A stretch of DNA of 64,000 nt from Dendrolimus kikuchii (taxonomy: Eukaryota; Arthropoda; Insecta; Lepidoptera; Lasiocampidae). The notes beneath the pieces were generated by a model. It was not told the origin of the DNA. It was given only the letters and a program-made list of their open reading frames with translations, and did no database searches. This document shows positions 14,626 to 49,823 of the stretch, piece after piece; position 1 is the stretch's first letter; every line of letters starts with the position of its first letter. The stretch is from contig CM034388.1 of NCBI GenBank assembly GCA_019925095.2, positions 32,082,002-32,146,001 of the forward strand, in the 5' to 3' direction. The position numbers were made by a program, and so were the translations under genes.

Positions 14626-14787
14626 CGGTCCATACGCTAGTGGAGTGCGCCGCCTGGGGACCTCAGCGTCACTCGATGACCAACGTGGTTGGGCCAGTCG
14701 ACTCGCTCCAAGGCATGGTAGCTGCCATGCTGCGGTAGCGGACGGAATCTAGCGACTGCCTACGACTATCGGCGGGGCCCCGAGCCG

Positions 14788-14824
14788 CCACTGTCACATT
14801 CCCCCCTTCACTCCGTGACAGTGG
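14788..14824 (+). other. S-family 5' UTR stem-loop
   Basis: CCACTGTCAC ... GTGACAGTGG, a perfect 10-bp stem with a pyrimidine-rich loop, present at the same place in S1-S8 and S11 (for example 18278-18314 in S2). Further 5' UTR arms are CAGTGG/CCACTG with CGAGAGTCTCG, and CCCGTGTGG/CCACACGGG, which becomes GTGCGG/CCGCAC in S3. Confidence 0.7.
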
Positions 14825-15321
14825 TGTCCCACCTATCCACTCCAAATCCTGGTATTCCTTCCCTTCCTTCCAAACTTGTTCCCGCCAAACCACCCCTCCC
14901 TTCCGATGTCAGGAGAGCGCCGTGCTGCCGGTTCGTGGCGGAGCGGCGGGCACCGGGCCAGCGTTGAGCACCTTGCTCCGCTGGTCCGTTGCCAGGAGAG
15001 GGCTGCACAGTTCTGCCCTGTGCGCCCCATCGACGTGGACAGTGGCGGCGGGCTCAGTGGTGGGGCGAGAGTCTCGCCACTGGGCGCTACCGCCGAGCGT
15101 TTCCCCGTGTGGTGTCGTGGATCACGTCTCGCGGCCACACGGGACCGCGGGGCTTGCCTTGACCGGCTGGCCCAAGAGGAGAAAACCTCAATAAAAAACC
15201 CCTAATGCCTAAGCTGCGGCGCAGGGCGAGAGGCTTTGAGGTCGGGGGGGTAAACCCGGCCGTTACTGCGGACCACGCCTTTTTAATCATGATGACCTGT
15301 TTTTTACTCGTGGGAACAACT

Positions 15322-46763: not shown

Positions 46764-46765
<2 letters not shown>

Positions 46766-46847
46766 TTAGGTTAGGTTAGGTTAGGTTAGGTTAGGTTAGG
46801 TTAGGTTAGGTTAGGTTAGGTTAGGTTAGGTTAGGTTAGGTTAGGTT
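46764..46847 (+). repeat. TTAGG spacer S10/S11
   Basis: About 17 perfect units. Confidence 0.97.
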
Positions 46848-49823
46848 TCCCCCAGGGGGTGCCACCCTGGACTCTTCTCCGTCCAGGTAGTGGTACAAGG
46901 GGACGCGTCCCCGGGGCCCCGAGCCGCCACTGTCACATTCCCCCTTCACTCCGTGACAGTGGTGTCCCACCTATCCACTCCAAATCCTTGTATTCCTTCC
47001 CTTCCTTCCAAACGTATTCCTCCCCAAACACCTCTCCCATCCGACGAAAAGGAGGAGCGCCGTTCTGCCGGTCTGCAAGGCGGAGCGGCGGGCACCGGCT
47101 CAGCGTTGAGCACCTTGCTCCGCTGAAGCCGTTGCCAGGAGAGGGTGCGCAGTTTTGCCCTGCGCGCCCCATCGACGTTGACAGTGGCGGCGGGCTCAGT
47201 GGTGGGGCGAGAGTCTCGTCACTGGGCGCTACCGCCGAGCGTTTCCCCGTGTGGTGTCGTGGATCACGTCTCGCGGCCACACGGGACCGCGGGGCTTGCC
47301 TTAACCGGCTGGCCCAAGTGGATGAGCACCACAATAAAAAATCCCCCTAACCTAAGCTGCGGCGCAGGGCGAGAGGTGAATGGCCGGGGGGGTAAACCCG
47401 GTCGCTACTGCGGACCACACCCCGTTTTTTTGTTTTAAAGAAGTTTGTACTCGTGGGACCAAAAATGAAAAGTTTAAAATCCAAACCGTCCGACGCAGTG
47501 CCCGAGAAGGGCGGAGCAGACGCAGACGAGGGGCCCGCGAAGGGCCCAACCACCACTACCAACCCGAAAGGGCCCGTGAAGGGCGGAGGTGAAAAAACCT
47601 TTTACTCGCGCTTCCTGTCGGCGATATCCTCGCCGACGGAAGCGCAAGGTTCTAAGGCATCTGGCTCCGGTTCTAAACCGTCGCAGCCTCATCTTGACGA
47701 CGATCTGTCCTCGTTCGACTCATCCGGAGACGAGGACATGGTGCCCCCCCCTGTCCAGGCCCCACCAAAGGCCCCGGCAGCGAAAGCGCCGGAGGGAGGG
47801 GGCAAGAGCCAGGCTGCCCCCCGCAACGAGCGGTTGAGGCAGTACCTGGCCCTTGATGATCTATCCCCCCCGACTTCCTCGGACGAGGAGGGGATATTGC
47901 CCCCCCCGCTAAAGCCCCCGCCTAAGGCAGTCGCCAAAGCGCCGGAGGCTAAGCGGGGTAGAGGTAGACCCCCCACCACGGGGGAGTACGTCGGCTTGGC
48001 TGAAGCCAAGCAGAAGTATGTGGAGGCCCAGCGCGCAGCTCTCGCGCTGGAAACAGAAAAAGAGATTGTGGAGAGGGCCTCAACAATGGCTGCGACAAGG
48101 GTGACGCGTTCCAAAGCGGCACCCTTCCTCGCGAGCCAGCCCTCTCCGGAGGCCAGCGCGGAGCTCGCGCAGGGCCTCAAAAAGCAAATCGCCGACTCTT
48201 TGGCGGTGGTTTCAGGAGTGGCCAAGGTCTCCAAAGGCCTAAAGGGGACCTTGCAGAAGGCCCTCAAGGAGGCGGCTGCGGCCATACAAGAGGCTTCGGA
48301 GGAGCTTCTCAGCCGCACCAGCAGCGAGGAGGTCGCCCTCCTCCGTGCAGCGAACTCGCGCATGGAGTCAGAGCTGGCAGACCTCCGAAGCGAGCTGAAG
48401 AAGCTCCAGACGGAGCTCATGAGGCCGCGGGAAGCCGCGCCGCCTCCAGCGGAACCACCGCCGAACACAGAGTCGGTGATGATGGCCGCGAACCTAGAGC
48501 GTATGACGCTCCTCTTCGAGAGTCGGTTCGCGGCCATGGAGGAGCGGATGCGCTCGGCCCAGCTGGCCCCGTCTCCAAGGCCAGCCCCTACGCCGAGCCC
48601 CGCTCCTCAAAGTAGAAGGATATCCCTGCCGAGCTCGCCCAGTATGTTGGCGCCCTCGGCAGAGGACTTCCCACCGCTACCCTCTAGAAGGGTCAGCGGG
48701 GAGACGGTGGTGGCGGAACCCACACCGCCACCACCCGCCTGTCCGGCGCCCCTCCCCTCATCGGCCGCGGCTGAGGAGGGCTGGACGACGGTCAGCAAGA
48801 AGAAGGCCGCCAGAAAGGCCGCCCAACCGTCGTCCGGCGCCCAACCGGCCGCGGCCGCCGCCAACGCGCAGACCACCCGCGCGAGGCGGCAAAGAGGGAG
48901 AGGGCGTGGGAAAAAGGGAAAGGGGGAAGTGGCGCAGGCTTCGGCCTCGCAGCCCCCCCCTCCTCCTCCTCCCCCCCCACCCAAAAAGGAGAGAAAAGCC
49001 AGGGGCAGGAAGGCTCCGCGATTGCGTCAGCCGAATTCCTCCGCAGTCGTACTGACTATGCAGTCAGGCGCGGAGGAAAGAGGCGTGACGTACGCGAGCC
49101 TCTTGTCCCTGGCTAAAGCCAATATACGGCTGGCCGACCTCGGCATTGAGGGCGGGCTCCGGCTTAAGCGAGCGCGCACTGGGGCGCGGATGCTGGTGGT
49201 GCCTGGCGCCACTAGCGCCCCCCAGGCTGACGCCCTAGCCGCGAGCCTACGCACCGTCCTCGACGCCGGGGATGTGCGTGTGTCCAGGCCTGAGAAGGCG
49301 GTGTATGTCCGCGTCTCGGGCTTGGACGACACCACGGAAGCAGAAGACGTGGCCGCTGCCATCGCGCGGACCACCGGATGCTCTGTAGAGAGCGTCAAGG
49401 CGTCCAAAGTCCGCCCCGGACCAGACGGGGCGGGCACGACGGTGGTGGCCTGCCCGGTGGCAGCCGCCAAGACGTTGCTTCAGGTGGAGACGAAACTCCT
49501 GGTGGGCTGGGCCTCAGCTGAGGTCAGGGCCCTCCCGCATCGCGCACAGAGGTGCTTCCGCTGCCATGAGCTTGGGCATGTGGCGGCGGGATGCACTTCT
49601 GAGGTGGACCGCAGCGGTACTTGCTACCGCTGCGGAGAAGCCGGGCACATGGTGACCGGCCCCTGCACCGCGAAACCGCACTGCTCCGTGTGCGAGGCCG
49701 CGGGCAGGCCAGCCGGTCACCAGCTGGGTGGGGGGTCCTGCGGGTCCCGAAAGCCCACCAGAAGAAAGAAGGCCAGCCGTAAGGCGCCTGACAGGGCCGC
49801 GGCCGCGACGGCTACACCAGCCG
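46848..49823 (+). mobile_element. S11: S element truncated at its 3' end and capped by TTAGG
   Basis: Complete leader and 5' UTR (46848-47464) and most of ORF1. The sequence stops in the last codons of ORF1 (CCAGCCGTT) and passes straight into TTAGGTTAGG. The last ~14 codons, the whole 3' UTR and the poly(A) are missing. The chromosome end is inferred to lie to the right, so the lost part is on the distal side. Confidence 0.88.

What the first reader, a model, noticed from the sequence alone, without database searches (positions are those of the whole stretch)
14626..49823. Array of eleven Gag-only retrotransposons on a TTAGG telomere, a HeT-A-like lifestyle
Seen: S1-S11 each have one zinc-knuckle ORF1, a ~380-base 3' UTR and poly(A), with no endonuclease or RT anywhere; five ORFs are fully intact and five leaders start at the same base. 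Known: Bombyx SART1 and TRAS1 carry ORF2; Drosophila HeT-A encodes only Gag and borrows RT. Inference: an amplified Gag-only SART-derived family that maintains ORF1 because Gag is needed, with RT supplied in trans.
Basis: partly seen in the sequence, partly recalled or inferred. Interest (0 to 1): 0.9.

Follow-up and report, generated by a model that had tools for sequence, protein, structure and literature searches.

The report
Gag-only SART elements fill moth telomeres
Chromosome ends of the pine moth Dendrolimus kikuchii carry long rows of a jumping gene that encodes only its Gag protein and lacks the copying enzyme, which is likely borrowed from rarer complete relatives in the same genome: a lifestyle like that of HeT-A in fruit flies, but in an animal that still has a telomerase gene.

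Summary
The window lies near one end of a Dendrolimus kikuchii chromosome. Eleven head-to-tail S units sit in the (TTAGG)n strand; five ORF1s are intact and no unit has an ORF2. Genome-wide there are 482 S-type 3' ends (0 in the reversed control); those listed stand in ladders of about 3.5 kb, mostly near contig ends. SART endonuclease (ORF2) at 84% identity or more has about 38 copies. dN/dS over 22 Gag-only ORF1 frames is 0.25-0.29 (medians), against 1.1-1.7 in shifted frames. Intact two-ORF SARTs exist in the same genome and share leader, insertion site and a covarying 3' UTR fold with S. Copies 99.97% identical on three chromosomes, with different 5' ends and poly(A) lengths, show recent spread. 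That SART RT copies S RNA in trans, and why Gag is kept, remain inferred. HeT-A, Drosophila 'half' elements and HAL1 are precedents, so this is a new variant of a known kind: SART-derived, site-specific, telomerase-positive host. Two TRAS-like Gag-only elements in the same window suggest that it happened twice.

The parts
14527..14623 (+). (TTAGG)n tract before S1
14624..18113 (+). S1: Gag-only unit with a chimeric 5' end (14624-14772 is not S leader; 14625-14732 reads as a piece of SART ORF2 C-terminus)
15322..17712 (+). S1 ORF1, 796 aa, intact (start codon inferred)
   Evidence: zinc knuckle by Pfam
17713..18088 (+). S1 3' UTR, 376 nt, strongly folded; poly(A) 18089-18113
18195..21752 (+). 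S2, preceded by degenerate GGGTT repeats; ORF1 18815-21352, 845 aa, intact
21765..25192 (+). S3; ORF1 22380-24779, 799 aa, intact
25215..28645 (+). S4; ORF1 broken into several frames; looks mosaic
28689..32230 (+). S5; ORF1 29313-31823, 836 aa, intact
32263..35788 (+). S6 (subfamily B); ORF1 frame-broken in its N-terminal part, then open to 35399
35806..39302 (+). S7; ORF1 frame-broken
39370..42873 (+). S8 (subfamily B); ORF1 39981-42479, 832 aa, intact
42947..44221 (+). S9; 5'-truncated, broken
44222..46763 (+). S10; 5'-truncated, rest of ORF1 open to 46355
46846..49823 (+). S11 (subfamily B); ORF1 from 47465, cut at 49823; no 3' UTR or poly(A)
49824..49838 (+). three TTAGG repeats on the cut end of S11; inferred healing of a broken end
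2843..8944 (-). T1: TRAS-like Gag-only element (ORF1 4157-5845, 562 aa; no ORF2 found), a separate family with the same habit
8948..14527 (-). T2: TRAS-like Gag-only element (ORF1 10238-11932, 564 aa; no ORF2 found)
49839..57720 (-). T3: TRAS-like element with ORF1 (54004-55569) and ORF2 (50292-54038); 5' end at or beyond 57720

Best explanation
S elements are Gag-only (ORF1-only) relatives of the telomere-targeting SART retrotransposons in this moth genome, and they are likely copied in trans by the endonuclease and reverse transcriptase of the intact two-ORF SARTs, which would recognise the 3' UTR fold that both share. SHOWN: in S, ORF1 is followed within a few tens of bases by a 3' UTR that in the full element begins right after the ORF2 stop, so ORF2 is absent as a whole. 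SHOWN: the start of the leader, the insertion site and the 3' UTR fold are common to S and the full elements. SHOWN: S copies are many, lie mostly near chromosome ends and mostly in one orientation, spread recently, and their ORF1 evolves under purifying selection. INFERRED: S RNA makes its own Gag, which packages S RNA (and perhaps SART ORF2 protein) and brings it to telomeres. INFERRED: SART ORF2 protein nicks GGTT^AGG and starts reverse transcription at the S poly(A). INFERRED: each insertion adds about 3.5 kb to an end that telomerase would also extend.
For: Intact full SART on C16:23425394-23432139, 6746 bp, with ORF1/ORF2 overlap TAATG and EN plus RT domains. Three second-type SARTs with ORF2 frames of 1062-1090 aa and leaders 91.6-94.5% identical to S over the first 201-225 nt. 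3' UTR of S and these full SARTs: 71-74% identical over about 254 nt; 88 shared pairs, 10 with changes on both sides; 99.5% of cells paired against 95.9% in shuffles and 44-48% when slid; 34 double-change cells against 11.1, reached by 0 of 500 shuffles. GGTT^AGG at 7 of 8 leaders and 7 of 10 3' joints is the site reported for SART1Bm, whose proteins move an unrelated RNA in trans if it bears the SART 3' UTR (PMC7265360, passages). dN/dS within subfamily A: median 0.28, 152 of 153 pairs; shifted frames, medians 1.14-1.68; neutral simulation 0.65-1.51. S1 is 99.97% identical to copies on C21 and C16 that have other 5' ends and poly(A) lengths. S1's 5' end carries a piece of SART ORF2, as expected of a template jump from S RNA to a SART RNA.
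Against: No RNA, protein or mobility data. The Gag-only clade has only modest support (82/68), and an earlier 34-row tree left A, B and the full SARTs unresolved, so the Gag-only state could have arisen more than once. The four full SARTs read differ from S by 26-29% in the aligned part of the 3' UTR, so none is a recent parent. The first of them shares with S leaders only 29 bases at the 5' end and a later 62-base block. S arrays could also grow by recombination between ends. 3 of 10 3' joints do not fit GGTT^AGG (S1, S4, S9). The S1 5' piece matches a third, more distant SART best (72% aa), not the two intact types (40-43%). The N-terminal part of ORF1 is under looser constraint (dN/dS up to 0.78 in one pair).
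Confidence: 0.8

Rival explanations
1. The arrays grow mainly by recombination or break-induced replication between chromosome ends, and S has not moved by reverse transcription for a long time.
For: MoTeR arrays of a fungus are reported to grow and shrink this way (PMC7367193, passages). S9/S10 join without telomere repeat, and L040 has a joint at 4596/4597 inside a 3' UTR. 3' UTRs of subfamilies A and B are more alike than their ORF1s.
Against: Near-identical copies on C2, C21 and C16 differ at their 5' ends and poly(A) lengths (25, 34, 28). The closest pairs in the window are not neighbours (S3/S10, S6/S8). Ten of 11 units have a poly(A) of their own, and 7 of 8 leaders stand at GGTT^AGG.
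Confidence: 0.12
2. S copies are repeatedly made deletion products of full SARTs; the low dN/dS is inherited from the full elements and says nothing about a need for Gag in S.
For: Tree support for one Gag-only clade is weak and absent in the first tree. Leaders of S and type-2 SART are 91.6-94.5% alike over about 200-225 nt while ORF1s are far less alike, so leaders seem to be exchanged.
Against: S-type 3' UTRs are set apart from those of the four full elements read, which have 7-8 mismatches in a 28-base word. S of subfamilies A, B and D have the same ORF1-hairpin-3' UTR build. Within A alone dS reaches 0.58 with median dN/dS 0.28.
Confidence: 0.12
3. S Gag is kept for the host, as a telomere-binding or capping protein, and mobility is secondary.
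For: ORF1 is the only protein kept, in all eight stretches read near other chromosome ends.
Against: The UTR fold is kept and copying is recent, which a host gene would not need; many copies are broken.
Confidence: 0.08

Closest known systems
SART1Bm and other SART elements of Bombyx mori and Tribolium
   Same: Orientation in the TTAGG strand, insertion between T and A of TTAGG, RNA-binding ORF1, 3' UTR with poly(A) that is recognised in trans (PMC7265360, passages)
   Different: SART1Bm is 6.7 kb with ORF1 and ORF2; S is about 3.5 kb without ORF2. The full SART of this genome (6746 bp) matches SART1Bm in build.
HeT-A of Drosophila
   Same: Gag-only, most abundant element of the telomere array, RT thought to come from TART or from the rare full relative TAHRE (PMC5537684, PMC4700185, passages)
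   Different: HeT-A is of the jockey clade (recalled), has an unusually long 3' UTR and works in a host without telomerase; S is SART-related, site-specific, has a 376-nt 3' UTR and lives beside a TERT gene.
HTR ('half' telomeric elements) of other Drosophila species
   Same: Telomeric elements that lost pol and keep gag; found in every TR group except TART (PMC10088271, passages)
   Different: Described in Drosophila; not SART/TRAS.
HAL1 (half-L1) of mammals
   Same: LINE derivative that encodes only ORF1p and arose several times (PMC5753468, passages)
   Different: L1-derived; not telomere-specific (recalled).
MoTeR2 of Magnaporthe
   Same: Lacks RT, shares both ends with an RT-bearing telomeric element, stands head to tail with telomere repeats between copies (PMC7367193, passages)
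   Different: Its inner part is an unrelated sequence of no obvious function; S keeps an ORF1 under selection.

Membership tests
SART (telomere-specific retrotransposon) | Insertion in the TTAGG strand between T and A | tested here: met
   GGTT^AGG at 7 of 8 leaders (S2 stands after a variant repeat) and at 7 of 10 3' joints (S1, S4 and S9 differ)
SART (telomere-specific retrotransposon) | ORF1 with CCHC zinc knuckles, homologous to SART ORF1 | tested here: met
   zf-CCHC in S1, S2, S3, S5 and S8 (S2 and S5 just under the curated cut-off); 56-61% aa identity of the core to the ORF1 of the full SART on C16, in which Pfam itself found no domain
SART (telomere-specific retrotransposon) | ORF2 with endonuclease and RT | tested here: not met
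   absent from the eleven S units but for a 36-residue piece in S1, and from the 19 S units read elsewhere; S is therefore filed as a non-autonomous relative, not as a SART
SART (telomere-specific retrotransposon) | Structured 3' UTR ending in poly(A) | tested here: met
HeT-A / Drosophila HTT elements | Gag-only coding capacity at telomeres | tested here: met
HeT-A / Drosophila HTT elements | Descent from the same (jockey, recalled) clade | tested here: not met
   S ORF1 core is 56-61% identical to that of an element with SART-type ORF2 and site; no jockey element was compared
HeT-A / Drosophila HTT elements | Host without telomerase | tested here: not met
   PF12009 match, 52.7 bits, C26:8071945-8072307, open frame 709 aa; activity not tested
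HeT-A / Drosophila HTT elements | RT supplied in trans | not testable with these tools
   inferred only
HAL1 | Derived from L1 | tested here: not met
   homology is to SART ORF1; no L1 element was compared

The most novel reading that the evidence does not exclude
Splitting a telomeric retrotransposon into a copious Gag-only part and a rare enzyme-bearing part is a repeated, stable solution at insect telomeres: in this one moth both the SART-type and the TRAS-type families have done it, Gag-only copies outnumber the enzyme-bearing SARTs by more than ten to one, and long stretches of the chromosome ends are Gag-only elements although telomerase is present.
Probability: 0.45. Interest if true: 0.85.

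Novelty: new variant of a known kind. Interest (0 to 1): 0.74.

Why it matters
HeT-A, a telomeric element that keeps Gag and borrows RT, is known from flies that lost telomerase. Here the same division of labour stands in a moth that has a telomerase gene, in another family of retrotransposons, with intact enzyme-bearing relatives in the same genome. The SART system already has a published trans-mobilisation assay (PMC7265360, passages), so the open question of why such elements keep Gag, and what Gag does for an RNA whose RT comes from elsewhere, becomes directly testable. The S family also offers hundreds of copies for measuring selection.

Tried and rejected
Considered and rejected: a local tandem duplication of one deleted element (units differ by 4-28%, neighbours by 8-28%, nearest relatives of S1 on other chromosomes); a GC-rich non-coding satellite with chance ORFs (dN/dS with shifted-frame and simulated controls); S units as ordinary 5'-truncated SARTs (complete ones have both ends and lack the middle). 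A 120-aa open frame in the 3' UTR of several S units was not pursued as a gene.

Led nowhere or weak: Rfam scan of the window, 0 matches. PDB search with S8 ORF1 gave only nucleocapsid zinc knuckles at E about 0.008. Alignment A2 held one row taken from wrong coordinates (L044b) and was not used for counts; A3 replaced it. The first tree (34 rows, some long or chimeric) did not resolve Gag-only against full SARTs. A count of full-SART 3' ends by pattern and a genome search with the TRAS-like T2 ORF1 did not complete. P0011, a relative from another source that falls with the Gag-only copies, could not be read as DNA, so the age of the Gag-only state across species is open.

Rows dropped or chosen: the 3' UTR search scored 40 of 698 first-look candidates. 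The eight stretches were chosen around eight of its 41 matches, so they could not have missed S; two of them (L040, L042) also hold an ORF2-bearing SART. Of 25 open frames found, two (S7 part; L040_4919, frame-broken near its end) were left out. Pairs with few codons or tiny dS were left out: 225 of 231 core pairs and 226 of 231 C-terminal pairs were used in frame, 133-178 in the shifted frames; 152 of 153 within A. The spacing count used 98 of the 100 places printed, not all 482; the distance-to-end count used the 83 on contigs whose length was known. The endonuclease count rests on 131 scored of 2553 candidates and is a lower bound by the tool's own words; the 482 is a whole count, fragments included, so the ratio is rough.
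Full report
WHERE IT IS. The window is G000:C2:32082002-32146001 of a 705,495,508-base genome. Its contig lengths (for example C21 20,406,548; C14 24,274,896; C6 28,263,831; C3 29,447,241; C2 32,160,216) equal the contig lengths listed for Dendrolimus kikuchii proteins, and the published assembly is 705.51 Mb on 29 chromosomes (PMC8589036, passages). The window ends 14.2 kb before the end of C2. The word stem 'telomer' does not occur in the main text of that paper.

THE OBSERVATION. Eleven S units lie head to tail on the + strand, most of them separated by (TTAGG)n or variant repeats. 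A complete unit is about 3.4-3.6 kb: leader, ORF1 of 796-845 aa (start codons inferred), a hairpin at the ORF1 stop, a 3' UTR of about 376 nt and a poly(A) of 24-37. S1, S2, S3, S5 and S8 have intact ORF1; S4, S6 and S7 are broken; S9 and S10 are 5'-truncated; S11 is cut at its 3' end. ORF1 carries a CCHC zinc knuckle. No ORF2 is encoded: the only trace is a 36-residue piece at the very 5' end of S1.

NOT A LOCAL ACCIDENT. A 28-base word of the S 3' UTR (up to 2 mismatches) occurs 482 times in the genome and 0 times when read backwards. The four full SARTs read here have 7-8 mismatches to it and one diverged SART 9, so the count is of S-type ends, fragments included. Of 72 neighbouring gaps under 20 kb among 98 listed places on C2-C9, 57 are 3.3-3.8 kb, the Gag-only length; 75 of 83 listed places on contigs of known length lie within 150 kb of a contig end. 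Eight stretches of 7.9 kb near other chromosome ends, chosen around S 3' UTR matches, were read: all 19 S-type 3' UTRs in them follow S ORF1 directly; two stretches also hold an ORF2-bearing SART. S1, from its base 150, is 99.97% identical to a unit on C21 (1 mismatch in 3341); from its base 218 it is 99.97% identical to one on C16 (0 mismatches, 1 gap in 3274). These have different 5' ends and poly(A) of 25, 34 and 28. I read them as independent, recent insertions.

SELECTION ON GAG. Pairwise dN/dS (Nei-Gojobori) of eight window ORF1s is 0.18-0.43 over the whole frame; the N-terminal part is looser (up to 0.78 in one pair), and one very young pair has 0.56 in the C-terminal part at dS 0.024. 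With 22 Gag-only frames from the window and the eight stretches, the core has median 0.29 (0.10-0.50) and the C-terminal part 0.25; the same alignments read in shifted frames give medians of 1.14-1.68. Neutral simulations with the base make-up of ORF1 give 0.65-1.51 and almost no stop-free copies. Within subfamily A alone dS reaches 0.58 with median dN/dS 0.28; A against B has dS 0.57-0.82 and median 0.33.

THE ENZYME-BEARING RELATIVES. On C16 an intact SART of 6746 bp stands at 23425394-23432139. It starts after TTAGG with nearly the same first 29 bases as S leaders (96.6%), has ORF1, overlaps ORF2 by TAATG, and ends in a 3' UTR homologous to that of S, which in this element begins right after the ORF2 stop. 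Its ORF2 has endonuclease and RT domains. A second type (C21, C16 low end, C6) has ORF2 frames of 1062-1090 aa and leaders 91.6-94.5% identical to S over the first 201-225 nt. Genome-wide, 39 of 132 matches to the SART endonuclease query are at 84% identity or more (about 38 copies, two of the matches being pieces of one); the other 93, at 70% or less, are other families, mostly interior (the tool calls such counts lower bounds). So S-type ends outnumber these SART ORF2s roughly 13 to 1.

A SHARED 3' UTR FOLD. The S1 3' UTR with its flanks folds far better than shuffles (-239.1 against -189.3 kcal/mol, z -7.9). On an alignment of seven Gag-only and four full-SART 3' UTRs, RNAalifold gives 88 pairs, 10 of them with changes on both sides. 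99.5% of cells are paired, against 95.9% in shuffles and 44-48% when the partners are slid; 34 double-change cells against 11.1, reached by 0 of 500 shuffles. One measure, further pair types, is not above shuffles (430 of 500 reach it), and most double changes fall on one split, Gag-only against full SART, so they are few events. SART1Bm proteins need their 3' UTR and act on it in trans (PMC7265360, passages).

ORIGIN. A tree of 23 ORF1 cores puts the Gag-only copies together with P0011, a protein from another source, apart from the full SARTs, with support 82/68: not shown, not rejected. An earlier 34-row tree left this open. One loss of ORF2 before the A/B/D split is the simplest reading, because all three share the same build and 3' UTR; recurrent loss is not excluded.

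CONTACT BETWEEN S AND SART RNA. Bases 2-109 of S1 read SVHTLVECAAWGPQRHSMTNVVGPVDSLQGMVAAML, 72% identical to the ORF2 C-terminus of a diverged SART on C22 (E 3e-12 against the array); S leader sequence follows from base 150. A template jump from S RNA to a SART RNA explains this; recombination could too. It is circumstantial evidence that both RNAs met the same RT.

TELOMERASE AND TELOMERE DYNAMICS. One TERT-type match (PF12009, 52.7 bits, open frame 709 aa) lies on C26, so unlike in Drosophila a telomerase gene is present. S11 breaks off after ...CCGTT, where S8 goes on with GCGGGG, and AGGTTAGGTTAGG follows: the scar expected if a broken end was healed by telomerase, as described for a truncated MoTeR2 (PMC7367193, passages). 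Inference: S arrays act as a buffer that is lost and rebuilt.

A SECOND FAMILY WITH THE SAME HABIT. On the - strand of the same window, T1 (2843-8944) and T2 (8948-14527) are TRAS-like elements that appear complete from 5' end to poly(A), with intact ORF1s of 562 and 564 aa and no ORF2 match. Their ORF1s are 58% identical with dS 1.70 and dN 0.33 (ratio 0.19), against ratios of 1.1-1.2 in shifted frames. T3 and T4 nearby keep both ORFs. Their genome-wide number could not be had.

KNOWN OR NEW. Gag-only telomeric elements are known from Drosophila (HeT-A, HTRs; passages), ORF1-only LINEs from mammals (HAL1; passages), and an RT-less telomeric partner from a fungus (MoTeR2; passages). Searches of the held library listed no report, by title or start of abstract, of a Gag-only SART or TRAS; beyond listings I read passages of seven papers only, and most subscription papers are not held. 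I therefore call it a new variant of a known kind: SART-derived, site-specific, telomerase-positive host, with intact likely helpers present.

WHAT STAYS INFERRED. That SART proteins copy S RNA; that S Gag is translated and needed; that S adds usefully to telomere length; the ORF1 start codons.

Noticed in passing
window 2843-8944 and 8948-14527 (- strand): Two TRAS-like Gag-only elements (T1, T2), apparently complete at both ends, intact ORF1 (58% aa identity, dN/dS about 0.19), no ORF2 match, 3' region of about 1.3 kb: a second family in the same telomere with the same loss.
   Followed up: partly
window 14624-14772: Chimeric 5' end of S1: a piece of SART ORF2 C-terminus (14625-14732) ahead of the S leader; likely a template jump between S and SART RNAs.
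   Followed up: partly
window 49812-49838: S11 is cut inside ORF1 and followed by TTAGG repeats, like a broken chromosome end healed by telomerase; two TRAS elements with ORF2 lie beyond it.
   Followed up: partly
window 17713-17738 and the same place in other S units: An 8-11-bp hairpin at the ORF1 stop, kept in subfamilies A, B and D although the loop and the stop codon position differ; not seen in the full SART 3' UTRs aligned.
   Followed up: no
window 18114-18196, 28646-28658; L042; L039: Variant telomere repeats (GGGTT runs) beside some units instead of the usual GGTTA.
   Followed up: no
L040:4596-4597 (C16): An S unit cut inside its 3' UTR is joined directly to a 5'-truncated copy 99.97% identical to S1, without poly(A) or TTAGG.
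   Followed up: no
L042 (C22, reverse strand) 322-4392: A third, diverged SART with an ORF1 remnant and ORF2 in two overlapping frames; endonuclease 50% identical to the query; its 3' UTR gave no match to the S 3' UTR at E 1e-10.
   Followed up: partly
G000 places at 70% identity or less: 93 endonuclease matches at 62-70% identity, mostly interior and mostly in open frames of about 1060 aa: other, apparently intact related families.
   Followed up: no
window 25215-28645 (S4): S4 looks mosaic: closest over its length to S11 (87.6%), although S11 is of subfamily B and S4's 3' UTR and ORF1 end look like subfamily A.
   Followed up: no
G000:C26:8071945-8072307: Telomerase (TERT RNA-binding domain) gene candidate with a 709-aa open frame.
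   Followed up: partly
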